Source: Nitrospirota bacterium (lineage in GTDB: Bacteria; Nitrospirota; Thermodesulfovibrionia; Thermodesulfovibrionales; Magnetobacteriaceae). From it: a stretch of 64,000 bases of DNA. Of the stretch, positions 2,634-57,104 are shown one piece after another. Position 1 is the first letter of the stretch. Every line of letters starts with the position of its first letter. The notes under the pieces were generated by a model. It ran no database searches and was not told the origin of the DNA. It saw only the letters and a list, made by a program, of their open reading frames with translations. The stretch spans positions 1 to 64,000 of the forward strand of contig JADFXD010000001.1 of the NCBI GenBank assembly GCA_015233725.1, written 5' to 3'. Made by a program: the position numbers and the translations under genes.

Positions 2634-3296
2634 TTACATTGACCAGCTTATGAGTTTTTGGAGTTTATTGATGTCGTTAAGTTTGATTCTGTCGCCGGTA
2701 GTCTGGATCAGGCCTTTATCGCGCAGCTTTATGATTGAGCGTGTAACCGAGACCCTGCTGGTGCCGGTCATATCGGCTATCTCCTGATGCGTCAGTGGTA
2801 TCTTGACGATGCCATTTTCCGAGTACTTCAGCAGGAGCGAGGCTATCCGGCCCTGTACATCCATAAAGGCCATGTCTTCAAGGAGGTTCTCCATACTGAG
2901 GCGCTTATCCCCAATCATTTGGATCAGTTTTATAGCAATGTCCGGTCTTTTCCTTAGAAATCCCTCAAAGATGCGTTTATCTATCTCAAAGCCTGTTGAC
3001 CTCTCCGTTGCCTCAGCCGTTGTGCTTCTCTCTTTTTCACCTGCCAGGGACATCTCGCCAAAGAACTCACCAGGCTCTATAACATCGAGAGTGAGCTTTC
3101 TGCCGTCGTGATAGAGCTTCGATATCTTGATACGACCACTATCGATAAAGTATATGCCATGCGACGCATCACCCTGTATAAACACCGTCTCGTCCTTGTT
3201 GTAGGAAAACCCCCTTGCATATGTATCAACGTACTGGAGCTCTGCCTCCGTTATATCACAAAACAACGAGTTGTGCCTTAAGCCGTCAACCTTCAT
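2634..3296 (-). CDS. Crp/Fnr family transcriptional regulator
   Basis: cNMP-binding fold (GIYFIDSGRIKISK...GEFFGEMSL) and C-terminal HTH (LTHQEIADMTGTSRVSVTRSI). Confidence 0.93.
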   Translation of the reverse strand: MKVDGLRHNSLFCDITEAELQYVDTYARGFSYNKDETVFIQGDASHGIYFIDSGRIKISKLYHDGRKLTLDVIEPGEFFGEMSLAGEKERSTTAEATERSTGFEIDKRIFEGFLRKRPDIAIKLIQMIGDKRLSMENLLEDMAFMDVQGRIASLLLKYSENGIVKIPLTHQEIADMTGTSRVSVTRSIIKLRDKGLIQTTGDRIKLNDINKLQKLISWSM

Positions 3297-3838: not shown

Positions 3839-4001
3839 GCGTGTATATAATTAATTATGGGCAGGTACTTAAAAAATCAGACACACCCACAAGGACAGGT
3901 GTTAGTCGCCAGCCCGACATTGGTCTCCTACAGACTAAAACAATAAATCGTGATGCTATCCGCTAAATGTTTTTGCTGTAATATCCGACATAACTCTGTA
4001 G

Positions 4002-5729
4002 ATGAAACGGATCATGGAGTTAAGGACGCAAATAAGCGTAGCAACAATTGTGCCACTGTTGCTTACTGTATCTATTGTTATTGGCGTTGGATACCTGATG
4101 TTAAACAAGTCACCACAGATGCAGACACTGGGCTATGCCCCTGGGCTGATTACCCTGGGATCGTGTCTGCTCTATTTCTGGCTGGTTGTCTTTGACAACA
4201 ACCGGACCAAAAGACAGATCAGCCAGTACCTGAGCTCAATGAACCAGCCTGTTGACAGGCCAAAAGCTGAGGGTCAGGTTGAGGGTCAGGTAGAGGTTCG
4301 GGCACACCTTGAGAGGATTATCACCCTCCTTGAGCAATCCAACGAGCTGGCCCGTGGAGGCAACAAGGAGCTAATGACTGCCATATCCGAGGTCGTCCAC
4401 GATGGCCTGAAAAAACACGCAACCACCATACTAAGGTCAAATAATCAGCACATCGAGTACATGGTCTCAAGCATTGCCAGCATTGTATCTGAACACCTTA
4501 AACCAGGCATCGATGACATTATCTCCGAATTAACAAGGACGAACAAAACCCTCAGACAATCAGACACCCAGGGCATCCAGACCTCCATACAGCAACTGGT
4601 TAATGCAATCAGCGATATAAAATCCTTCAAGGATGACCTCTTCGTTGAACTTGCCAGGCTCGCCGAGACCCTGAACGTAAAGCAGGGCGAGTATGACGGA
4701 GAGATAAAAGGCATCATCGGGCAACTACAACTATTGCCTGGACAGATGCACTCTACATATACACAGTTAGCAACAGACCTCAGCGCCGCAATAAATGACA
4801 TGCGAGGCATCTACACAGATGCCAGGGAATCGACCACCTCACTGGCAGCCGCCTCCACCGATGTCAGGCTCCTCACCGCGGGGTTGGCCAAGTCCACATA
4901 CTCACAAGAGAGGTTGTGCCTGAGCTTCAATGACCTGTTCAAGAAAGTGGATGACATAAGCATACTCAACACCCAGTTGCTTGAAAAGGAAAAAAACACG
5001 ATTAAGGCCCTCGAGACCACCATAGAAAAGACCCTCACCAACCTCGTTATACAAACAGATATCTTTACAGTGCGTACAACCGAGGGACTCAACAGATTCA
5101 TCAACGACGTAACCTCCGGCCTGTCAAAGACCTCAGGCAGTATAGACAATCAAAACACACGGCTTATAGAGTGGACAAACAGCATTGACCAGCATATTAG
5201 CAAGCTCTCCACACAAAACACAACCACGCAGGAGGGCTTTAAAAAACTCATCGCCCTCATAAACAGCGCTATCGAGAAACAGGCTAATACACTTGGAAAC
5301 AGCTCCAAGGCGGTAAACCTGATAAGGGAGTCTGCCGTTTTATTGCTAACCGCCTCTGCGGATGTTAGGCTAATCACCGAGGGGTTGGTCAAGTCTACAG
5401 ATATACAGGAGAGGTTGGGCGTAAACTTCAATAACCTGCTCAAGGAGATAGAAGCCAAGGGCATACGCAACTCCCAGTTGCTGGAAAAAGAGATTAACAC
5501 GTTTAATGCGCTCGAGGACACCATAGAGAGGTTACTGAGCAACCTCGTTACACAGACAGATGCCTTTACAGGGCGTACAACCGAGGGACTCAACAGATTC
5601 ATCAACGACATAACCTCCGGCCTGTCAGGCTCGGTAAACGGCCTCCGCGGGGTCATTAACATTCAGACCGAGCTGGTTGATGAGATATCATCCACGATGG
5701 TACAACTCAACGACAAGCTCAAGGGGTAA
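4002..5729 (+). CDS. Membrane-anchored long coiled-coil protein (about 2 N-terminal TMs) with internal repeats; partner of EH_Signature-like protein
   Basis: N-terminal hydrophobic VATIVPLLLTVSIVIGVGYLML and APGLITLGSCLLYFWLVVF, then about 480 aa helical; repeat DVRLLTAGLAKSTYSQERL...TTEGLNRFINDVTSGLS vs DVRLITEGLVKSTDIQERL...TTEGLNRFINDITSGLS. Confidence 0.8.
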   Translation: MKRIMELRTQISVATIVPLLLTVSIVIGVGYLMLNKSPQMQTLGYAPGLITLGSCLLYFWLVVFDNNRTKRQISQYLSSMNQPVDRPKAEGQVEGQVEVRAHLERIITLLEQSNELARGGNKELMTAISEVVHDGLKKHATTILRSNNQHIEYMVSSIASIVSEHLKPGIDDIISELTRTNKTLRQSDTQGIQTSIQQLVNAISDIKSFKDDLFVELARLAETLNVKQGEYDGEIKGIIGQLQLLPGQMHSTYTQLATDLSAAINDMRGIYTDARESTTSLAAASTDVRLLTAGLAKSTYSQERLCLSFNDLFKKVDDISILNTQLLEKEKNTIKALETTIEKTLTNLVIQTDIFTVRTTEGLNRFINDVTSGLSKTSGSIDNQNTRLIEWTNSIDQHISKLSTQNTTTQEGFKKLIALINSAIEKQANTLGNSSKAVNLIRESAVLLLTASADVRLITEGLVKSTDIQERLGVNFNNLLKEIEAKGIRNSQLLEKEINTFNALEDTIERLLSNLVTQTDAFTGRTTEGLNRFINDITSGLSGSVNGLRGVINIQTELVDEISSTMVQLNDKLKG

Positions 5730-5734
5730 CGTTA

Positions 5735-7231
5735 TTGTCCGACATTGACATAGAGGCCATTGAGAAGTCGATCAGCTCAATTGGACAATCAGGGCTGACC
5801 TATGATTGCGCCGCCCTTGATGGGCTCGCCAATAAAGACCAGGACCACCCAGCTACCCCTGTCTTAAATCCCCCCCCACGTTACAGGTCTGAGCTCAGGA
5901 GGATCAAGAACAAGATCAACGCCTCTATGGCCATACACAATCGTATGCCCGAGCTGACCCATCGGGAGCTTAGGCTCCTGGCATATGATCACGACCTGCC
6001 GATAAACAATAAATCTATCTACCTAAGGTTATTAGAGGCAATAAAAACATCAGGGATAAGCTCCTGTCTGCTCTACAAGAATCTGCTCTTTGTGTATTTC
6101 AAGAGGTACAGGTATTTCATTGAACATCAAGCCCTCTTGCTACCCCTGAAGGAGCTGTGGCTGTCATGGGGGCAAGGCGCTCAGGATGCCTGCGATCTCT
6201 CTAATGTAGCAGGGGCAGTGGAGGTGTACTTCTCCAGTGAGGCACCGCTTAACATCGCCAGGTGCATACTAGGCGAAAAGGAGAAAGACCCCCGAAATCA
6301 ATCTATGCACCCGGCAATCAATACCCTCCTGCTAAGACACCACTTATTGCCCGGCACTGATGACCTGTTGACAGAGACATATAACAGTATTATTAATCTA
6401 TGCCTGGATGGCTTTAGCAATCCCCTCTACCTCAACGTCTTGTTGTATGAGGTACTGCTGCCAAATAGCCAATCGGAGAACCAACCAGAGGGCCAATCAA
6501 ACAAGGGCATCATCGATAAGGCACGCTCCAGAGAGATCGTCTCCGAGCTGCTACGACTCGCCGACTCCTTCGTCACAGACAAGGCCGCCTGCGAAAAGAA
6601 ACTAAAGAGATACTTCATGACCCAGTATGGCCTTGGAGACCCTCGCAATCCCTGCTGTACAGATAACTGGAGCGGTGTGGATGAGCAATCAATCAGTATA
6701 TTCAGGAGGTGGTTGGTCGAGGACGATATAGTATTCTTCTTCAAATTCCTATCGGATGACCGCAACGATGCCTATGGCCGGAGGTCGTTATGGTTGCGCC
6801 TTGCAAACTCAATACAGGACAGTCGCATATTTATCTCCAACTACCACTACAATGCCCGTAGAGAGGTCATCGAAAGAGCAAGGCAAGACGGCAGGGAACC
6901 CTCCTCTTTGCACTGCGACAGCGGCAGGCTTAATTCAAGCTGCATAGCGTTTAACCTTGACAACCTCCTCTATGCCATAGAGTTTACCGAACCTGATACC
7001 GCCCTGTATATCTACCATAAGGAGGTATTTGACATAGACCTGACACAAGACAAACTCAATATCTCAGACCTTAAAAAGATAGATGCCCCCACGGCAACTC
7101 AAAACACTCAAATGATGCAGTTTTACTACCACACGAGCTACCCCGCCCTGCGCTTCTATCACAGCAACAACTGGCAACTCTTTGTGGAAAAGTATCTGTC
7201 ACTCTACAACATAAAGGCACACCCCAGTTAA
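5735..7231 (+). CDS. EH_Signature-like (ZorC-like) protein
   Basis: C-terminal block SIFRRWLVEDDIVFFFKFL...GRRSLWLRLANSI...NLLYAIEFTEPDTALYIYHKE...ALRFYHSNNWQLFVEKYLS: invariant-like E and H-x3-W motifs; starts 5 bp after upstream CDS. Confidence 0.6.
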   Translation: MSDIDIEAIEKSISSIGQSGLTYDCAALDGLANKDQDHPATPVLNPPPRYRSELRRIKNKINASMAIHNRMPELTHRELRLLAYDHDLPINNKSIYLRLLEAIKTSGISSCLLYKNLLFVYFKRYRYFIEHQALLLPLKELWLSWGQGAQDACDLSNVAGAVEVYFSSEAPLNIARCILGEKEKDPRNQSMHPAINTLLLRHHLLPGTDDLLTETYNSIINLCLDGFSNPLYLNVLLYEVLLPNSQSENQPEGQSNKGIIDKARSREIVSELLRLADSFVTDKAACEKKLKRYFMTQYGLGDPRNPCCTDNWSGVDEQSISIFRRWLVEDDIVFFFKFLSDDRNDAYGRRSLWLRLANSIQDSRIFISNYHYNARREVIERARQDGREPSSLHCDSGRLNSSCIAFNLDNLLYAIEFTEPDTALYIYHKEVFDIDLTQDKLNISDLKKIDAPTATQNTQMMQFYYHTSYPALRFYHSNNWQLFVEKYLSLYNIKAHPS

Positions 7232-7273: not shown

Positions 7274-9643
7274 CTACCGTTTTGTTGTGAGTGCCTTAAG
7301 TGCCCAGAACGTGTAGATGTTTGTCCAGAAGTCCTGCCTGTCCTTGAGGCCTAGGCTCAACAGGAAGGGTCTTATCTGGTTTGCGTACATGGAGGCGATC
7401 ACGACAAAGGGACGTCTGCTGGTCTGGGCCAACTGCTGTAGGTGAGACGGCTGATGTATTGCCAGCCCCATGAGGTGCTTGTCACACCTGTTGGGGTCGC
7501 TGTCGATGAGGCCATCTACGTGTATGTTTGAGTTCAGGAGCATGTTGAGGGTCAACTCCCCTGCCTGACCTGCCCCCCAGATGTATAAGGGCCGCTTGCT
7601 AAAGAGGTTGTTGACCGTGACCGTCTGCTTTAACCGGTTGAGGTAGCTCTGTTGATGGTACAGGCGGATTTCGAGGTTTTCGTGGGCTGGCAGTTGCCCC
7701 TTGCGGGAGAGGGCATCGGGCGTGGTCCAGTACAGACCGGTGACCTCCGGTATGTGGTGTATTTCATACCTCTGCCCCAGACGTAGCCAGAAGTCCTGAT
7801 CCCCGATGGCCTTGTATCTGGCGTCAAAGTATCCGATGTCGTCGTGGACGCCCCTGCGCCACATGGGGTGTGGGCCTATCAGGCAGTTGCACAAGAGGTC
7901 CTCGTAGCAGAACTCAGGCCATCTGTAGATGTCACAGCAGTGGTGGTTGTCAAAGGTTTGATGGGGCACCTCAGTGAGATAAGAGTCACCGTAGACGAGC
8001 ATACAGTTGGGGTTGTCGTTGAGGTGACCGGCCAGGAGCTCCAAGGCATCCATTCTCAGGCGGTCGTTTGTGCTAAAGGTAGTGATGTATTGACCACGAG
8101 CTATCTTTACAGCGATATTCCACGCCTCATACACACCGATCCTGGTGCCGGTTCTGACGTAGGTGATATTGTGATACTGGCGCTGATACTCATGCACTAT
8201 CGCACGCTCATCCTGTGTGGAGGCCGCATCTACGACGATGATCTCTGTGCCCTGGGCGATGGTCTGCCCTTGAAGGTCTTCCAGGCACTCGCGCATAAAC
8301 CCCTCCGAGTTGTACGTGGAGACCAGGACACTCACAAGGGGGGAGTCATCTCCAGCGTAGATAGTTGGTAAGGCGCCCTCTTGCATCCCACTCACTTTAT
8401 GGGAGGGGCCAGGGGAGAGATAGTTGATGACCTCAACGTCCCTTGAGGTGAGGTAACTGTCGGACCATCTCCACCGATGGCTAGGAGGTTGACAGTGCCG
8501 TTGCCCAGGGTCGCTAAATTGACCGGCGCCTCTGGTATTATCGACGACAATCCGTGGCCTTGTCAGTTGGCCATCTGTCGGGGACAAGGTCATCTTCATG
8601 GCCTGTACAATGGCCTCCGGCGATATATCGCTGACACAATGGGCAGAGCGATATATGCAGTTCCAGTTGCATCCGTAGCACTCTAGTGGCAGACACACGG
8701 CCGTTGTCAATGGGCTGTAGGGTATGAAGCGCCCAAAGTGTCCACCGCCAAGCACCACCACGTTGGCAACCCCCAGGGCAGAGGCCATGTGCGCCCCGGA
8801 GGAGTCGCAACCCAGGTAGAGGCGACACCTGCCAATTATCGCGGCACACTGACGAAGCGTCGTCTTACCGGTGAGGTCGTGGCAGTAGGGCAGCTCTGCC
8901 CTTATGAGGTGGGCCGCCTCGGAGGCATCCCCGCCTCCAACGATCACACAGTTGTAGCCCTTAAAGTGGCCAATGACCTGGGCATAGGCCTTGTATATAT
9001 TGTGGTGGTTTTTTGCCCAGGGAAAGAGCGCTATCGTATCTTGCGGCAAGAGCGCGTTTTCCTTGAAGAAGTCATCGGCAAAGGCCATGTCCTGCCCACA
9101 GAGCCATAGGAGCGGTCTGAGACCGTCCCGTGTGGTATCGATACCGATGCCCCTTAAGAACTCCTCGTGCCTGTACATCTCGGTGCGTTGTTGACAGCAG
9201 GTGTAGATTAACTTTGTGTAAAGCGTGTTATTGGTCTGTCGCAGTTGTGTGGTCATACCGTTTGCAAGGTCTCCGTTGAAGGCGATCCTCTCTGTGGCCA
9301 TGCTGCCGATGGTAAGGATGTCGGTCAGTGGTTCTCGTGAAAAGACCGAATTCAATGCTATATCCGGCTTAAGAAGGCGCAGCCTCTCTATCAGCTCGTC
9401 CCGATACGCCTCGTTGGCGTAGGCCATCGCCCGGTCAAAGGTGATGACGCCATCGATCTCAGGGCAATGCTCATAGAGTTCAGCAACGTGGCCCTGGCAG
9501 AGGACTGTTATGGCGTGATCGGGGAATCTCTTTTTTATCTCAGGCAGCATCGATGAGGCAAGGATATTGTCCCCGATGGAGTCTGTTCGTACCCACAGTA
9601 AGGTCATATTTCTACTGCCATTGCCGTTTTGCACCTTTGTCAT
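7274..9643 (-). CDS. Multidomain glycosyltransferase: GT9 (heptosyltransferase-like) + GT2 + C-terminal Rossmann-like domain
   Basis: LLWVRTDSIGDNILASSMLPEIKKRFP (GT9); VSVLVSTYNSEGFMRECLEDLQGQT...EIIVVDAAS (GT2); PLYIWGAGQAGELTLNMLL (Rossmann). Confidence 0.88.
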   Translation of the reverse strand: MTKVQNGNGSRNMTLLWVRTDSIGDNILASSMLPEIKKRFPDHAITVLCQGHVAELYEHCPEIDGVITFDRAMAYANEAYRDELIERLRLLKPDIALNSVFSREPLTDILTIGSMATERIAFNGDLANGMTTQLRQTNNTLYTKLIYTCCQQRTEMYRHEEFLRGIGIDTTRDGLRPLLWLCGQDMAFADDFFKENALLPQDTIALFPWAKNHHNIYKAYAQVIGHFKGYNCVIVGGGDASEAAHLIRAELPYCHDLTGKTTLRQCAAIIGRCRLYLGCDSSGAHMASALGVANVVVLGGGHFGRFIPYSPLTTAVCLPLECYGCNWNCIYRSAHCVSDISPEAIVQAMKMTLSPTDGQLTRPRIVVDNTRGAGQFSDPGQRHCQPPSHRWRWSDSYLTSRDVEVINYLSPGPSHKVSGMQEGALPTIYAGDDSPLVSVLVSTYNSEGFMRECLEDLQGQTIAQGTEIIVVDAASTQDERAIVHEYQRQYHNITYVRTGTRIGVYEAWNIAVKIARGQYITTFSTNDRLRMDALELLAGHLNDNPNCMLVYGDSYLTEVPHQTFDNHHCCDIYRWPEFCYEDLLCNCLIGPHPMWRRGVHDDIGYFDARYKAIGDQDFWLRLGQRYEIHHIPEVTGLYWTTPDALSRKGQLPAHENLEIRLYHQQSYLNRLKQTVTVNNLFSKRPLYIWGAGQAGELTLNMLLNSNIHVDGLIDSDPNRCDKHLMGLAIHQPSHLQQLAQTSRRPFVVIASMYANQIRPFLLSLGLKDRQDFWTNIYTFWALKALTTKR

Positions 9644-12800: not shown

Positions 12801-14153
12801 TTATATCCAATTACTTACCTGAAGTGGCAACATTGTCATACCGTGAAATGGTAACTCCATTGTCTCGTCGAAGGTTACTATAATGGGGCCCAGGCCCTCG
12901 AACCTGTCGTGATAGCAGGTTGCTGTCTCTGTGGGTTCTGAGGCGCCGATACCAAAGGTATAGTACCCTGGTTTGACGGTAAAAGTCAACTTAAGGCGTA
13001 CTACGCAGCAATCACCGGCGGACATATCCGGCAGCCTGTGTCCGACCTGTCTTGCGCCGCCTGCAAAGACGAAATTGCCAAGTCGGTCAAACAACGTCAC
13101 CGCTACATTGGGGTCAATTATCGTCTCGTTTGCCTTGACCAGGACGTAGAAGTCCAGGCTGTGCATAAGTTCAACGGCCAGCGTGTCTAATCCAGCCTCA
13201 TTTATCACCCTGAGACCAAGAAGCATCATGCCGCCGGCGCCGTGTCTTACAGCCCTGCCGTCATTATCCACGGTGGATATGTTGTCCAGGACGTTATGAG
13301 CTAGGATATCCTGGGGTGTCATCGACGTCTCGACACAGGAGGCATCTGACTCAGGGGGTGGGGCAGGGGCTGTGCTGATGTACTTCTTCTTTATGTTTAG
13401 GGATACGGAATACCTGTTGATAGATTCCACGGCCGGGCCAATGAAGTCAACCTCTCCGTTTCTTAGTATCACGGCCCTGTCGCACAGAAATCGTATGGCC
13501 TCCATGTCGTGGGAGACAAACAGGCATGTGGTACCATCATCTATTATCTGACGTATGGCCTTGAAGCACTTCTGCTGGAAGAATATGTCGCCAACGCTCA
13601 GGGCCTCATCCACAACCAGGATGTCCGGCCTTATAACAACGGCGCAGGCAAAGGCAAGACGCACATACATCCCCGTTGAGTATATCTTCATTGGTTGGTC
13701 TATAAACCCTCCGATATCGGCAAACTCCACGATAGATGGCATCATGGAGTCCATCTCACCCCTGGAATAACCCATCAGGGCGCCGTTTGCGTAGACGTTT
13801 GACCTGCCCGTGAATTCCGGATTAAACGCGGCCCCAAGCTCCAGGAGCGCCGAAATACGGCCATGTTTGATCACCGTCCCCGAGGTCATACGTAGGATGC
13901 CGCAGATTATCTGCAACAACGTGCTCTTGCCACAACCGTTGCTGCCCAGGATGCCCACTGCCTCTGCGTGGTTTACGTCGAAGGTTACGTCCTTTAGCGC
14001 CCAGAACTCCTGATGATAGCTATGTCTGTTGAGGCTTAACAGTTCCTTTATCCTGTCCCTGGAATTTGCATATATCCGGTATTTCTTGCTCAGGCCTATG
14101 ACGGAGATTGCCTTAGCGGGTGACACCGCTTGTGCAGAGGTGGTGTTGTTCAT
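12801..14153 (-). CDS. Polysaccharide ABC transporter ATP-binding protein (Wzt-like, with C-terminal carbohydrate-binding-type domain)
   Basis: GILGSNGCGKSTLLQIICGI; ILVVDEALSVGDIFFQQKC; C-terminal about 170 aa beta-type region. Confidence 0.9.
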   Translation of the reverse strand: MNNTTSAQAVSPAKAISVIGLSKKYRIYANSRDRIKELLSLNRHSYHQEFWALKDVTFDVNHAEAVGILGSNGCGKSTLLQIICGILRMTSGTVIKHGRISALLELGAAFNPEFTGRSNVYANGALMGYSRGEMDSMMPSIVEFADIGGFIDQPMKIYSTGMYVRLAFACAVVIRPDILVVDEALSVGDIFFQQKCFKAIRQIIDDGTTCLFVSHDMEAIRFLCDRAVILRNGEVDFIGPAVESINRYSVSLNIKKKYISTAPAPPPESDASCVETSMTPQDILAHNVLDNISTVDNDGRAVRHGAGGMMLLGLRVINEAGLDTLAVELMHSLDFYVLVKANETIIDPNVAVTLFDRLGNFVFAGGARQVGHRLPDMSAGDCCVVRLKLTFTVKPGYYTFGIGASEPTETATCYHDRFEGLGPIIVTFDETMELPFHGMTMLPLQVSNWI

Positions 14154-15206: not shown

Positions 15207-18200
15207 TTACTTAATGAGCCAATTGTTGGGGACGCCTTTTTCGACCAACGCCTCGCTGGCTATACTTGTACCGTTCATAAACCAGATCGCGACGTCTCCA
15301 TTGGTACCTTGCCAGAGGATATCGGCCTTGCCATCGCCGTTGTAGTCGCCTGTGTCCTTGAGCTGCCAACTGCCGGATGAGGCAACAAAGGCCTTGGCCG
15401 TTACGGTTGTCCCGTCGATGAGCCAGAGCGCTACGTTGCCAGTTGAGTTATCCTGCCACAGGATATCGGCCTTGCCGTCGCCGTTGAAGTCAGCTACCGC
15501 TTTTATCTGCCAGTTGGCCGCAACTGCGTGCTCAACGTAGGCCTTGCCCTTAATGCCAAGACCGTTCATAAACCAGATCGCGACGTCTCCATTGGTACCT
15601 TGCCAGAGGATATCGGCCTTGCCATCGCCGTCGAAATCGCCAACGCCCTTGATCTGCCACACTGAGGGCACACCCTTTTCAGCATAATCACTTGTCGATA
15701 TGCTTGTGCCATTCATAAGCCATATAACTACATCGCCGCTTGTATTTTGCCAGAGGATATCGGCCTTGCCATCGCCGTTGAAATCGCCAACGCCCTTAAA
15801 TTGCCAATTAGCTGGCAGGCCCTTTACTACATAATTATTTGTCGCTATAGTCGTACCATCCATAAGCCAGGCTACAACGTCTCCATTGGAGGCTTGCCAG
15901 AGGATATCGGCCTTGCCGTTACCATCAAGGTCGCCCTTTGCCAGGACGTGCCAATCACCAGGTACACCCTTGGCTGAATAGCCCTTGGAGGAAACATTTG
16001 ATCCATTGATAAGCCAGATAACCGTGTCTCCATTAGAGCTGTCTTGCCAAGATATGTCACTCTTGCCATCGCCGTCAAAGTCGTTTTTAGCGCTACCATT
16101 AGAAGCCTTGGAAAAACTGGCGGTAACGGTCTTTGACGCCGTCATATTCACAACGCAAGTAAGACCAGATGTCGAATCGCAGCCTGTCCATGCCTTAAGC
16201 GTAGAGGCTGAATCAGGTGTAGCTGTGAGGGTATCCCCAGCGCCATCGGCGTATGTTGCCACGCCAGTGTTAAGATTCCATAGGATTATCCCACTTAATG
16301 CAGTAACCACGCCGCTACCATTGCCTGTAACGTTTATGGTAAGCGTCCTGTTTAAGGCAAAGTTGGCAGTCACGTTCATATTCTTTGACATTGTCAACGT
16401 GCATATCAGACTCTTTCCAACTGTAGCGCAGTCACCGCCCCAGCTAACAAATGTTGAGTTATCAGAGGTGACGGCTGTCAGTTTCGCCACGGTAGTTGGG
16501 TCTGTATATGTTGCCGTGCCTGAATTGCCAGACCACGCCAGATTTCCGGGGGACACCGTGATGTTGCCGCTGCCTGTGCCTGTCTTGGTCACGGTGAGGT
16601 TAGCTGGTGTAGGTGTAGGGGTGGGAGTCGGCGTAGGGGTTGGTGTTGGAGTTGGGGTTGGTGTGGGAGTGGGCGTAGGGGTTGGCGTCGCCGTAGGTGT
16701 TGGGGTCGCCGTAGGTGTTGGGGTTGGCGTTGGGGTGTGAGTCGGAGTTGGGGTCGGAGTTGGCGTGGACGTTGGGGTCGGAGTTGGAGTAGGTGTGGGA
16801 GTCGGCGTTGGTGTTGGAGAGGCAAAGACATACACGGCGCCTCTGTTTGTACCTCCTGCTGTTGATTGATAAGCCCCTGTCACAATTGTCTTACCGTCTG
16901 TGGTTATCGATAATGAATTGCCTAACCTCTCACCATCAACGGCATTTGATGCAGTTAATTTGGCCGTCTCAGTGGCGGTTGTCCATCCACCGGCAGGCCT
17001 TACAAACACGTAGGCAGCGCCTCTCTCAATGCCCCCTGATGTTACTGCCGCACTAGGAGCCCCTGCCACAACCGTGCTACCGTCTGAGCTTATGGATACG
17101 GAAAACCCTAATGCATCGCTATCAGCGCCATCTGAGGCGGTTAGTTTGGCCGTTTCATTGCCGCTTTTCCATCCCCCTGCAGGTCTTGCAAACGCGTAGA
17201 CAGCGCCTCTATAAGTGCCTCCTGCTGCCGCCTGAGGAGCGCTGGCCACAACCGTACCGCCATCTGAGCTTATGGATACGGACCAGCCAAAATTATTATA
17301 ATCAGCGCCATCTGAGGCGGTTAATTTGGCCGTCTGAGTGCCGGTTGTCCATCCCCCGGAAGGCCTTACAAACACGTAGGCAGCGCCTCTCAGTATGCCT
17401 CCTGTGACTACTGCCGCATTTTGAGCGCCTACCACAATTGTGCTATTGTCAGGGCTTATGGATACGGAACTGCCTAAGTTATCACCACTAGCACCATCTG
17501 ATGCGGTTAGCTTGGCCGTTTGATTGCCGGAGCCATCTACCCATCCTCCACCTTTTGCAAATACGTACACGGCGCCTGTAAATGATAATGCACTATTGGC
17601 CCCTGAGACAATCGTGTTGCCGTCTGAGCTTATGGATACGGAATTCCCTAAACCGTCGCCAACAACGCCACCTAACGCTGTTAGTTTCACCGTCTGAGTG
17701 CCGGTTGTCCATCCCCCACCGGGTCTTACAAATACATACACAGAGCCTTTAGTAGGGAATGGAGAGTCTGGGTCAGCTCCCCCAACAACTCCAGCCACAA
17801 TCGTGCCGCCATCTGAGCTTATTGACAACGCCCATCCTAAATCATCCCAATCGGCGCCATCTGATGCGGTTAGCCTGGCCACCTGAGTGCCGTTAGACCA
17901 TCCTCCAGCGGACTTTACAAACACATACGCAGCGCCCCTATTATTGCCCCCTGATACCACTGATACCCCAGGAGCGCCGGCCACAACCGTGCTGCCGTCC
18001 GCGCTCATTGCCACGGAACTGCCTAAGCTATCATAATCAACGCCATCCGACGCCGTTAGTTTCGCTGCCTGTACCCAGGGGTCTATTACTATCGGAAACT
18101 GTGCGCCATTTAGCGCCACCTTTATATCTATGCCCTCAGGGCTCTTGTCAAACCACGCATTCAGCTCCTTACCGGTCTTGTCGTAGGCGTACAGCCCCCC

Positions 18201-18860
18201 GTATAACAGCCCGACGTTGCCGCGCTTATCCTTGACCTCGATACCCTTTTTGTCGCTGATGTATAGCTCCCCTTGCGTCTTTAACTCCAACGTCAGGGTC
18301 TCTGCCTCTGCCGAGGGCCTTTCCATTATCGTCCAACCCTGCTGTATTCCGCCGGGGCCATTGACGTACCAGCTCTTTATCCCGCCCTCGGTGTACTCAA
18401 GCCTGTTGTCTCTACGATTGACCTCAACCGTATGTCCGTGCATCTGGCCGCGCGTTTTGACCCGCTCGTTGCCGGCTTTCACCCCCTTGAGGGCGATACC
18501 AAAACCAACGTCCTTGCCCTTTATGCTCAGACCGTCTTTGCTTACCAGCGCCTTGAGCCGCTGGGCATGATTATTTAGCTCGTAGGACTTGCCCCTTTGA
18601 CGTATCTGGTACGACTCGGTGTCTTTGCCGATCGCCTCGGATATCTTGTACTGTAATGGCGCCTCAAGGTTGTCAGGCCTTGCCTTTGTCTCCTTACCTG
18701 CTATGGGTTTTGGCGCTGACTTTACCTCCCTGACCTCTGATGCCTCTGGTCGTAAGAGTAGCACACACGCCAGAGATATTAATGCGATAAACCATTTACT
18801 AGCACTGCCTAAAGACTTCATACCAATCCTCCTAATCTTTTTTTTATGTGACATTGCCAA
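15207..18860 (-). CDS. Large secreted FG-GAP/VCBS-repeat protein with Thr-Pro linker and InlB-type repeats
   Basis: Signal-like N-terminus; repeated [29 protein letters not shown]; TPTPTP tract; repeated [12 protein letters not shown]. Confidence 0.88.
16604..16815 (-). repeat. Low-complexity Thr-Pro coding tandem repeat
   Basis: Repeated gttggggtyggngtnggngt on + strand, encoding TPTPTPTP on - strand. Confidence 0.9.
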
Positions 18861-53550: not shown

Positions 53551-53684
53551 TTTTTGCGTGGGCTGGGGGGGTGAGTTGTGGCGTGGGGGGATGTATACAT
53601 TCTCTCATCGTATTTGCAAACCTCTGATTAGATATTATACAATATATTGTCGCTTTATTTTTTTAAGGTATAATGGAGGGTGTT

Positions 53685-56600
53685 GTGAAACATTCAAGGA
53701 TGTTTGTCTTATTATTTTGCATGTTAGCCTTTTATCTGGTTGTGCCTCACGCAGCTATGGCGGTTGGCATCACCGAGTACGCCATACCCACAGCGGGTAG
53801 TCAGCCGTATGGTATAACCTCTGGCGCTGATGGCAATCTATGGTTTACTGAATTTAACACTAACAAGATAGGGAAGATCACCACAGCAGGGGTTATTACC
53901 GAGTACACCATACCCACGGCGGGTAGTCAGCCGTATGGTATAACCTCTGGCGCTGATGGCAATCTATGGTTTACTGAACAACACGGTAACAAGATAGGGA
54001 AGATTACCACGGCAGGGGTCATCACAGAGTACGCCGTACCCACGGTGGGTAGTATGCCGTATGGTATAACCTCCGGCGCTGATGGCAATCTATGGTTTGC
54101 TGAATGGGCGGCTGACAAGATAGGGAAGATCACCACGGCAGGGGTCATCACAGAGTACGCTATACCCACGGTGGGTGGTCAACCTGGCGATATGACCTCC
54201 GGTGCAGATGGCAATCTATGGTTTACTGAATATAACGGTAACAATATAGGGAAGGTCACCACAGCAGGGGGTATCACAGAGTACGCTGTACCCACGGTGG
54301 GTGGTGGGCCGTATGGTATAACCTCCGGCGCTGATGGCAATCTATGGTTCACTGAATATAACGGTAACAATATAGGGAAGGTCACCACAGCAGGGGGCAT
54401 CACCGAGTACGCTGTACCCACGGTGGGTAGTCAGCCTTTTGGTATAACCTCTGGCGCTGATGACAATCTATGGTTTACTGAATATAACGCTAACAAGATA
54501 GGGAAGATCACCACGGCAGGGGTCATCACCGAGTACACCATACCAACAACGGGCGGTGGGCCTGCTGGTATAACCTCTGGAGCTGATGACAATCTGTGGT
54601 TTGTTGAAAATAGCAGTAACAATATAGGGAAGGTCACCATCAGCACACACGCGCCCACACCCGCGCCAGATATTAATTATTACAACCTAACCGTAACCAG
54701 GGCAGGGACAGGCAGCGGCAGCGTAACGGGCGCCCCCATGCCTATAACAACCTGGTCGGGCAACACCGGTGTTGTAAACCGGCCCGAGCTCTCTTATGAA
54801 ACCCTGATTGCAGTTGCATCGGATAATTCAACATTCACCGGCTACAGCGGCGATTGTACAGGGATGACCGCTAACTGTACCCTATCGATGACAAAGAATA
54901 TGAGCGTCACGGCGACGTTTACCCTGAAATCCCATAGGCTCACCGTAACCAGGTCGGGCACAGGCAGCGGTGATATCACGGTCTCCCCAGGAGACCTGAT
55001 GTGGTCAGGCAATGCTGGTACGGCAGATTATACAGACGCTGCTACGGTGATAACCCTCACGGCAGTTGCATCTGATGGTTCAACGTTTGATGGCTGGGGT
55101 GGCGACTGCTCAACAACAGCCACTACCTGTACGGTAACTATGTCTAAGGATACGAACGTCACGGCGTCGTTCACCCTACAACCCAGGACACTAACCGTGA
55201 CCAGGGCAGGCAACGGCAGCGGTGATATCACGGTCTCCCCTGTGAATTTGACGTGGTCTGGTAATGCTGGCACGGCTACTTACTTACAAGGCACGGTAGT
55301 CATCCTCATCGCGACGGCATATTCGGGGTCAATCTTCACGGGTTGGGGTGGCGACTGCTCAGGGACAGCCCCCGCCTGTACGGTAACTATGTCAAGGACT
55401 ATGAACGTGACGGCGAATTTCGCCTTAGTCAGGACGCTTAAGCTAACTATCACGGGCGATGGCAGTGGTACGGTTACAGCCTCAAAGGGGGTAATCTTAT
55501 GGAACCTTAAGACGGGAGCAGCTACATATGCCGATGGTACGCAGGAGTCCCTGACGGCATCTGCCTCTGCTGGTTCAACCTTTGCCGGCTACAGTGGCGA
55601 TTGCACAGGGACAGCCCCCACCTGCACGCTCACGATGACAAAGGATATGAGCGTCACGGCGACGTTTTCCTCACAATCCAGGAAGCTCACCGTAACCAGG
55701 TCGGGCTCAGGCGTCGGCAACGTCACGGCCTCCACTGGGAATTTGACCTGGTCTGGCAATTCAGGCACGGCAGTGTATACAATCGCTACCGTGGTAACCC
55801 TCACGGCTACGGTATCTTCGGGGTCGATCTTTACGGGTTGGGGTGGCGATTGCTCAGGGACAGCCCCCACCTGTACGCTAACCATGACAAAGGATACGAA
55901 CGTCACGGCGACGTTTGCCTCACAATCCAGGAAGCTCACCGTAACCAAGTATGGCTCAGGCGTCGGCAACGTCACGGCCTCCACTGGGAATTTGACGTGG
56001 TCTGGCGATTCAGGTACGGCAGATTATACAATCGCTACCGTGGTAACCCTCACGGCTACGGCAGAGCCTGATTCGACGCTCAAGGCATGGACAGGCTGCG
56101 ACACCACAAATGGCGCCACATGCGTTGTGACGATGACGGCATCAAAGGCCGTTACCGTACGCTTTTCCAAGGGTGTCGATGCCGTTAAAGGTGACTTTGA
56201 CGGCGATGGCAAGAGCGATCTTTTACTGGTAGACGACTCTAACGGTAATATCTATATCTTGCTTAGTAGTGCAGTACAAACCTCATCTGGAGTAAACGCC
56301 TCATCCAAAGGCTATCCGGGCAAGGCTGCCTCCAGCCATTGGCATGTCTTGGCAACGGGTGACTTCAACGGCGATGGCAAGGCCGATATCCTCTGGCAAG
56401 ACTCCTCAACCGGCGACGTTGTGGTCTGGCTTATGGATGGCACAACCACAACGAAAGAGGCTTACGTGCGCAGGGGGATGTCGGTGGATTGGGTGTTTAA
56501 GGGCGTTGGCGACTTCAACGGCGATGGCAAGAGCGGCATCCTGTGGCACAACACCTCCAATGGTGGCATAGAGGTCTGGCTTATGGACGGTGATACGATA

Positions 56601-57104
56601 AAGACAGCCGGTATGCCTGCCATCGTGCACTTATCGAAGTGGCGGATACAAGCGATAGCTGACTTCGACGGCGACGGCAAGACCGACATACTGTGGTATA
56701 ACACCTCCGATGGCAGCCTCTACATGTGGTTTATGGATGGCTGTCTTATATCGTCAAGTGTCTCCATCGCCGCCACATCCGATATCACCTGGCAGATACA
56801 AGCGGTGGCCGACTTAAACGGCGATGGCAAGGCAGACATCATCTGGCAGAACAGTTCAACTGGCGATGTCGGGGTCTGGATTATGGATGGGGTTACCGTA
56901 AAATCTATGGACACTGTCTACAAGACCTTACCCAATAACTGGCAGTTCAGGAGCACCGGCGACTTCAACGGCGACGGCAAGGCCGACCTACTCTGGCAAG
57001 ACTCCTCAACCGGCGACGTCGCGGCATGGTTTATGGGCGGGACAACCATAGCCAGCACAGGGGGCATCGCAAGAGGCATTCCAAGCAACTGGCTTGTTAA
57101 ATAA
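53685..57104 (+). CDS. Secreted Vgb-like beta-propeller + InlB-type repeats + FG-GAP repeat protein
   Basis: 7x EYAIPTxGSQPYGITSGADGNLWFTExNxNKIGKITTAGVIT; LTVTRxGxGSGDITVSPxxLTWSGNxGTA repeats; [13 protein letters not shown] repeats; GTG start 53685 after ggaggg. Confidence 0.88.
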   Translation: MKHSRMFVLLFCMLAFYLVVPHAAMAVGITEYAIPTAGSQPYGITSGADGNLWFTEFNTNKIGKITTAGVITEYTIPTAGSQPYGITSGADGNLWFTEQHGNKIGKITTAGVITEYAVPTVGSMPYGITSGADGNLWFAEWAADKIGKITTAGVITEYAIPTVGGQPGDMTSGADGNLWFTEYNGNNIGKVTTAGGITEYAVPTVGGGPYGITSGADGNLWFTEYNGNNIGKVTTAGGITEYAVPTVGSQPFGITSGADDNLWFTEYNANKIGKITTAGVITEYTIPTTGGGPAGITSGADDNLWFVENSSNNIGKVTISTHAPTPAPDINYYNLTVTRAGTGSGSVTGAPMPITTWSGNTGVVNRPELSYETLIAVASDNSTFTGYSGDCTGMTANCTLSMTKNMSVTATFTLKSHRLTVTRSGTGSGDITVSPGDLMWSGNAGTADYTDAATVITLTAVASDGSTFDGWGGDCSTTATTCTVTMSKDTNVTASFTLQPRTLTVTRAGNGSGDITVSPVNLTWSGNAGTATYLQGTVVILIATAYSGSIFTGWGGDCSGTAPACTVTMSRTMNVTANFALVRTLKLTITGDGSGTVTASKGVILWNLKTGAATYADGTQESLTASASAGSTFAGYSGDCTGTAPTCTLTMTKDMSVTATFSSQSRKLTVTRSGSGVGNVTASTGNLTWSGNSGTAVYTIATVVTLTATVSSGSIFTGWGGDCSGTAPTCTLTMTKDTNVTATFASQSRKLTVTKYGSGVGNVTASTGNLTWSGDSGTADYTIATVVTLTATAEPDSTLKAWTGCDTTNGATCVVTMTASKAVTVRFSKGVDAVKGDFDGDGKSDLLLVDDSNGNIYILLSSAVQTSSGVNASSKGYPGKAASSHWHVLATGDFNGDGKADILWQDSSTGDVVVWLMDGTTTTKEAYVRRGMSVDWVFKGVGDFNGDGKSGILWHNTSNGGIEVWLMDGDTIKTAGMPAIVHLSKWRIQAIADFDGDGKTDILWYNTSDGSLYMWFMDGCLISSSVSIAATSDITWQIQAVADLNGDGKADIIWQNSSTGDVGVWIMDGVTVKSMDTVYKTLPNNWQFRSTGDFNGDGKADLLWQDSSTGDVAAWFMGGTTIASTGGIARGIPSNWLVK
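53775..54648 (+). repeat. Seven tandem 126-bp coding repeats (42-aa Vgb-type propeller blades)
   Basis: gagtac... recurs at 53775, 53901, 54027 and onward at 126-bp spacing with high identity. Confidence 0.92.

What the first reader, a model, noticed from the sequence alone, without database searches (positions are those of the whole stretch)
4002..7231. Two-gene membrane coiled-coil + EH_Signature-like locus: candidate minimal Zorya-related or novel defence system
The second protein shows the E (AIEFTEPDTALYIY) and H-x3-W (FYHSNNWQLFVEKYL) blocks that I associate with the EH_Signature domain of ZorC. Its partner, 5 bp upstream, has two predicted N-terminal TM segments and about 480 aa of cytoplasmic helical repeats. 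This recalls the long ZorA tail but lacks a recognisable MotA channel. There is no ZorB (OmpA-like) or ZorD helicase nearby: the next genes on both sides are unrelated and in opposite orientation. An EH_Signature protein paired only with a membrane-anchored coiled coil would be an unusual architecture.
Basis: partly seen in the sequence, partly recalled or inferred. Interest (0 to 1): 0.75.

Follow-up and report, generated by a model that had tools for sequence, protein, structure and literature searches.

The report
Motor-less Zorya relative in Magnetobacterium
A conserved two-gene unit of a giant magnetic bacterium pairs a relative of ZorC, a phage-defence protein, with a long membrane-anchored rod whose tip resembles that of the Zorya motor protein, but the motor, the cell-wall anchor and the nuclease of Zorya are all missing, so it may be a stripped-down defence system or a Zorya part reused for another job.

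Summary
Gene 1 (4002-5729, 575 aa) has a two-helix membrane anchor and a ~507-aa helical tail. Gene 2 (5735-7231, 498 aa) is a true EH_Signature protein: Pfam E 2.3e-25, 90 bits against a 27.5 cut-off. It is homologous to ZorC almost end to end, and its E416 aligns with E400 of E. coli ZorC. The host belongs to the genus of Ca. Magnetobacterium casense. The same two genes, and only those two, occur in all three genomes of that genus that are at least 88% complete, in three different places, under purifying selection. Every other EH_Signature locus I could read (7 in the phylum sample, 4 from plasmids) sits in a ZorA-ZorB-ZorC operon. Gene 1 has no MotA domain, but its last ~77 residues match the last ~77 of type I ZorA tails without gaps and better than all controls. 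I read it as a Zorya type I-derived module that keeps the rod tip and the EH protein and has lost motor, wall anchor and nuclease. It is not a Zorya system: three of four defining features fail. Defence is plausible but unproven, since no locus lies in a defence island; a domesticated role remains a serious rival.

The parts
4002..5729 (+). Gene 1: 575-aa membrane-anchored rod protein (two TM helices, about 507-aa helical cytoplasmic tail)
   Evidence: ORF; TM scan; orthologs 1113 aa in M. casense and split over two contigs in MYbinv3
4032..4088 (+). TM helix 1 (residues 11-29)
   Evidence: Kyte-Doolittle 19-residue mean 2.48; similar position in the orthologs
4137..4193 (+). TM helix 2 (residues 46-64); basic residues follow (RTKRQ), consistent with a cytoplasmic tail
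   Evidence: topology inferred from the positive-inside rule
4827..5201 (+). Tail repeat copy 1 (residues 276-400), period 167 aa
   Evidence: 53.6% identical over 125 aa to copy 2; offset 167 found; about five copies in M. casense
5328..5702 (+). Tail repeat copy 2 (residues 443-567)
5496..5726 (+). Tail tip (last 77 residues), similar to the C-terminal tip of type I ZorA
   Evidence: hhalign 42.2, probability 94, gap-free and co-terminal; best of 292 windows including controls
5735..7231 (+). Gene 2: 498-aa EH_Signature protein, ZorC homolog
6056..7192 (+). EH_Signature domain match (residues 108-486)
   Evidence: PF15611 E 2.3e-25
6980..6982 (+). Codon of E416, the E of the signature; aligns with E400 of E. 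coli ZorC (8r68)
7160..7174 (+). H476-x3-W480, the H block of the signature
   Evidence: H476 and W480 invariant in three orthologs; aligned with the conserved ZorC H and W by profile comparison
5721..5726 (+). AAGGGG, Shine-Dalgarno-like site for gene 2 within the end of gene 1
   Evidence: sequence; inference
3970..3993 (+). Upstream block TTTTTGCTGTAATATCCGACATAA, 22 of 24 bases the same in M. casense; likely promoter or operator
   Evidence: function inferred

Best explanation
This is a two-gene module derived from, or sharing ancestry with, Zorya type I. Gene 1 is a membrane-anchored rod: two TM helices hold it in the inner membrane, and a helical tail with 167-aa repeats reaches into the cytoplasm and ends in a ZorA-tail-like tip. 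Gene 2 is a ZorC-like EH_Signature protein. I propose that the rod docks gene 2 at its tip, and perhaps at tip-like segments of the internal repeats, and so holds a DNA-binding or DNA-acting EH protein close to the inner membrane. There it would act on incoming phage DNA, with E416 and H476 needed. Shown: gene structure, EH/ZorC homology, conservation of the pair, absence of MotA, ZorB and ZorD next to the pair, and repeat expansion. Suggested: tip homology. Inferred: oligomeric rod, docking, DNA as target, defence as purpose.
For: EH_Signature match far over cut-off. Profile comparison with six ZorC: probability 99.4, E 5e-21, 382 columns. E416 aligns with E400 of solved ZorC. The gene-1 tip matches ZorA type I tips gap-free and co-terminally, score 42.2 against shuffles 14.8 +/- 3.1 (max 25.8 of 200) and at most 28.6 for reversed, chemoreceptor and long-tail MotA windows. 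The gene-1 tail (507 aa) is as long as ZorA tails (377-543 aa), with a comparable hydrophobic period. The pair is kept as exactly two genes in three species beside three different sets of neighbours, under purifying selection but evolving much faster than guaB (69% against 93.5% aa identity). The other EH_Signature loci seen are Zorya operons.
Against: No defence genes around any of the three loci. All Zorya I components are required for protection there (PMC11890865), so it is unclear how the pair would sense phage or cut DNA; no nuclease was found in it. The unit is present in all three well-sequenced members of one genus and was found nowhere else, which looks more like a lineage trait than a mobile defence gene. 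At single-sequence level the tip match is within coiled-coil noise for two of three orthologs.
Confidence: 0.5

Rival explanations
1. Domesticated, non-defence module: a Zorya-derived rod and EH protein reused in Magnetobacterium for cell organisation, e.g. tethering DNA or magnetosome bundles to the membrane.
For: Found only in one magnetotactic genus and present in all three of its genomes that are at least 88% complete. Housekeeping neighbours. Coiled-coil proteins, some membrane-bound, organise magnetosomes in other bacteria (PMC11344931, PMC12748827).
Against: No magnetosome genes were recognised beside the pair in the three loci read. Faster evolution than a housekeeping gene. I know of no non-defence role of a ZorC relative.
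Confidence: 0.3
2. Split Zorya: the pair supplies tail and EH protein, while a ZorAB-like motor encoded elsewhere supplies sensing.
For: M. casense and MYbinv3 carry stand-alone long-tail MotA plus OmpA pairs whose OmpA protein matches ZorB at E 2e-16 and 8e-17.
Against: The window's genome has no such gene, though it is only 88.6% complete. The long-tail MotA C-termini do not look like ZorA tips. No ZorD: the SNF2 protein of all three genomes has strong relatives in 150 of 396 genomes of the phylum.
Confidence: 0.1
3. Decayed remnant of a Zorya operon without function.
For: Only part of the Zorya set is left.
Against: Intact ORFs, dN/dS about 0.2, a conserved upstream block and the same two-gene form in three species.
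Confidence: 0.03
4. The gene 1-ZorA resemblance is mere coiled-coil similarity, and gene 1 is an unrelated membrane rod that has partnered with an EH_Signature protein (this bears on the origin of gene 1 and can be true together with either function above).
For: Chemoreceptors also hit PADLOC ZorA models, down to E 4e-7. phmmer finds no gene 1-ZorA match.
Against: The tip match is position-specific, co-terminal and above all controls. The reversed gene 1 gives no PADLOC hit.
Confidence: 0.2

Closest known systems
Zorya type I (ZorA, ZorB, ZorC, ZorD)
   Same: EH_Signature protein homologous to ZorC almost end to end; membrane protein with a tail of the same length and a ZorA-like tip, encoded upstream of the EH gene
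   Different: no MotA channel, no ZorB peptidoglycan anchor, no ZorD helicase-nuclease; two TM helices; tail with 167-aa repeats that vary in number
ZorC (E. coli, PDB 8r68)
   Same: aligned core with E400 matching E416; phmmer E 3e-5
   Different: only 13-21% identity to ZorC proteins of the phylum; far below NCBIfam's ZorC equivalog cut-off (37.7 against 490 bits)
Zorya types II and III
   Same: membrane protein with a long cytoplasmic tail next to an effector gene
   Different: both have ZorA and ZorB, and ZorE or ZorF/G instead of an EH protein
CcfM and Mad/Man coiled-coil proteins of magnetotactic bacteria
   Same: coiled-coil proteins in magnetotactic cells; CcfM is a membrane protein
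   Different: no EH_Signature partner is reported; compared from papers only, not by sequence

Membership tests
EH_Signature (PF15611) | profile match over the curated cut-off | tested here: met
   90.2 bits against 27.5, E 2.3e-25
EH_Signature (PF15611) | conserved E and H | tested here: met
   E416 and H476 invariant in orthologs; E416 aligns with ZorC E400; H by profile alignment, spacing to W varies among ZorCs
Zorya type I | ZorC | tested here: inconclusive
   homologous (PADLOC ZorC E 4.8e-10) but below the NCBIfam ZorC equivalog cut-off
Zorya type I | ZorA with MotA/ExbB domain | tested here: not met
   gene 1 has no MotA match; the genome has only short MotA/ExbB proteins of 221, 278 and 282 aa
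Zorya type I | ZorA cytoplasmic tail | tested here: inconclusive
   tip similarity above controls, single-sequence scores mostly in the noise
Zorya type I | ZorB (OmpA-like) in the locus | tested here: not met
   no such gene next to the pair in the three loci read
Zorya type I | ZorD SNF2 helicase with nuclease | tested here: not met
   none in the locus; the SNF2 proteins elsewhere are generic
Anti-phage defence system | reduces phage plating | not testable with these tools
   needs experiment
Anti-phage defence system | lies in defence islands or on mobile elements | tested here: not met
   three loci, no defence neighbours; no relative of gene 2 in the plasmid collection or among viral contigs

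The most novel reading that the evidence does not exclude
A motor-independent, two-gene immune system in which a passive membrane rod of adjustable length, ending in a ZorA-type tip, presents a ZorC-like protein to incoming phage DNA. This would show that the tail-ZorC module works without the Zorya motor and nuclease, and that the EH protein is itself an effector or DNA trap.
Probability: 0.35. Interest if true: 0.8.

Novelty: new variant of a known kind. Interest (0 to 1): 0.58.

Why it matters
How the Zorya motor signals to its effectors through the ZorA tail is open. A natural pair that keeps only the rod (with a ZorA-like tip) and the EH protein points to the tip as the EH docking site and offers a small, testable complex. 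It would also show whether an EH_Signature protein can act without ZorD. The varying number of 167-aa repeats (two against about five) is a natural experiment on rod length.

Tried and rejected
Structure prediction of gene 2 and gene 1 with three-sequence alignments gave unusable models (mean pLDDT 42), so no fold search was made. PADLOC ZorA hits of gene 1 were not taken as proof, because chemoreceptors give hits down to E 4e-7. phmmer of gene 1 against ZorAs found nothing. Scoring the tip HMM on single sequences did not separate two of the three orthologs from reversed controls. A conserved SNF2/DpdE-like protein was considered as a ZorD in trans and rejected as generic. A test of mobility by empty sites was not conclusive, because flanks are scattered over contigs in all drafts. 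Two weak gene 1 hits elsewhere look like chance coiled-coil matches: one lies in an ORF that appears to be an ABC-ATPase, the other in a short frame with a stop inside. No relatives of gene 2 were found in plasmids, in viral contigs, or in the genome collection outside the genus.

Full report
What is there. Gene 1 (4002-5729) and gene 2 (5735-7231) lie on the + strand, 5 nt apart, between minus-strand neighbours. Upstream are a Crp/Fnr-type regulator (2634-3296) and an 89-aa membrane ORF; downstream is a two-domain glycosyltransferase (7274-9643). Gene 2 starts at TTG; the M. casense ortholog has a TTG at the same place and the MYbinv3 ortholog an ATG.

Gene 2 is an EH_Signature protein. Pfam PF15611 gives E 2.3e-25 and 90.2 bits against a cut-off of 27.5, over residues 108-486. 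PADLOC's and NCBIfam's ZorC models give E about 1e-10 to 1e-9, well below the ZorC equivalog cut-off (37.7 against 490 bits). A profile of the three orthologs against a profile of six ZorC from the phylum gives probability 99.4, E 5e-21, 382 columns, residues 63-495, so the homology runs almost end to end. The only PDB match is E. coli ZorC, 8r68, E 3e-5, where E416 aligns with E400. From my own knowledge (not checked here), E400 and H443 of ZorC were mutated in the original Zorya work and are needed. H476 aligns with the conserved H of ZorC in the profile alignment, but its distance to the W varies among ZorCs.

Gene 1 is a membrane rod. It has two hydrophobic helices at 11-29 and 46-64 followed by basic residues. 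The tail of 507 aa has four prolines and a strong hydrophobic period of 3.56. AlphaFold with three sequences is near all-helical, but its confidence is too low to use. The tail contains a 167-residue repeat: two copies in the window, about five in M. casense, where the first three are 78-87% identical to one another. In MYbinv3 the assembly breaks inside the gene.

Relation to ZorA. There is no MotA domain. Generic hits of the tail to ZorA models are weak evidence, because chemoreceptors of the same genome also hit ZorA models, down to E 4e-7. A stricter test was position-specific. The last 80 residues of the three gene-1 orthologs, against the last 95 residues of ten type I ZorAs, score 42.2 (probability 94), gap-free over 77 columns and co-terminal. 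Other ZorA windows score at most 23.0 and hydropathy-preserving shuffles 14.8 +/- 3.1, maximum 25.8 of 200. Among 292 windows of gene 1, chemoreceptors and long-tail MotAs, forward and reversed, the three best are the C-terminal gene-1 windows, and the best control is 28.6. With an HMM on single sequences, a held-out Klebsiella ZorA scores 43 bits, MYbinv3 gene 1 22 bits, and the other two 11.5-14 bits at the same terminal register; reversed controls reach 16. I call the tip homology likely but not proven.

Distribution. The search of 396 Nitrospirota genomes finds the pair only in the window's genus. One of the two other genomes is Ca. Magnetobacterium casense MYR-1 and the other Nitrospirae bacterium MYbinv3. 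A fourth genus member, 56% complete, has no hit. The other EH_Signature loci of the sample over the cut-off (seven loci in six genomes) are in ZorA-ZorB-ZorC operons. In one the contig ends inside zorC, so its helicase cannot be seen; the others have a large gene of ZorD size directly downstream, in one case cut by the contig end. Four distinct plasmid loci have ZorA, ZorB, the EH protein and a helicase gene annotated in a row. Gene 2 has no relatives in plasmids or viral contigs.

Surroundings. The three loci have different neighbours: Crp regulator and glycosyltransferase; guaB and cutA (named from their sequences); DUF362 and a PfkB kinase. None has defence neighbours. Only the two genes and a short upstream block are shared. 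dN/dS of gene 2 between the window and M. casense is 0.21, with 69% aa identity against 93.5% for guaB.

What else the cell has. The window's genome (88.6% complete) encodes only short MotA/ExbB proteins. M. casense and MYbinv3 carry stand-alone long-tail MotA plus ZorB-like OmpA pairs without effector genes, absent from the window's genome. The large SNF2 protein shared by the three genomes has strong relatives in 150 of 396 genomes of the phylum, so it is not a dedicated ZorD.

Reading. The pair keeps the two ends of the Zorya I signalling path, the tail tip and the EH protein, and lacks the sensor-motor and the nuclease. In Zorya I, deletion of any component or of the ZorA tail abolishes protection (PMC11890865), so the pair cannot work exactly as Zorya does. 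The most economical mechanism is a membrane-anchored rod that docks the EH protein near the membrane. What it does there, defence or a domesticated role, is not settled. I put a defence function at about one half.

Noticed in passing
L043:7495-9782 (M. casense); L044:6812-9588 and L045:8995-10845 (MYbinv3): Stand-alone long-tailed MotA proteins, two of them paired with a ZorB-like OmpA protein (PADLOC ZorB1 E 2e-16 and 8e-17), with no Zorya effector gene next to them; absent from the window's genome. L045's lies beside a different multi-gene cluster.
   Followed up: partly
PMC6783814, Ca. Magnetaquicoccus inordinatus UR-1, between mamD-like and feoA1: The paper reports an EH signature protein, a MotB and an 'apolipoprotein A1/A4/E' protein of unknown function near the magnetosome genes; by domain content this looks like an unrecognised Zorya ZorC-ZorB-ZorA set inside or next to a magnetosome island.
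   Followed up: no
L085:3559-7713, L086:9100-13236, L087:311-4435: A 1374-1384 aa SNF2 protein, 75% identical across the three Magnetobacterium genomes, each in a different neighbourhood; best PADLOC match DpdE (E 5e-191 for a 953-aa part), but relatives are widespread in the phylum.
   Followed up: partly
L018:4853-4960: A roughly 105-bp dispersed repeat, tens of copies in MYbinv3 and a few in the window's genome, with further short repeats near 5085-5135 and 13585-13695; possibly MITE-like, and may contribute to shuffled gene order.
   Followed up: no
window 15207-18860 and 53673-57104: Large proteins with FG-GAP and Flg_new_2 (InlB-like) repeats, the second also with a virginiamycin B lyase-type propeller; likely surface or secreted proteins. 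The first lies near ABC-2/Wzt-type polysaccharide export genes.
   Followed up: no
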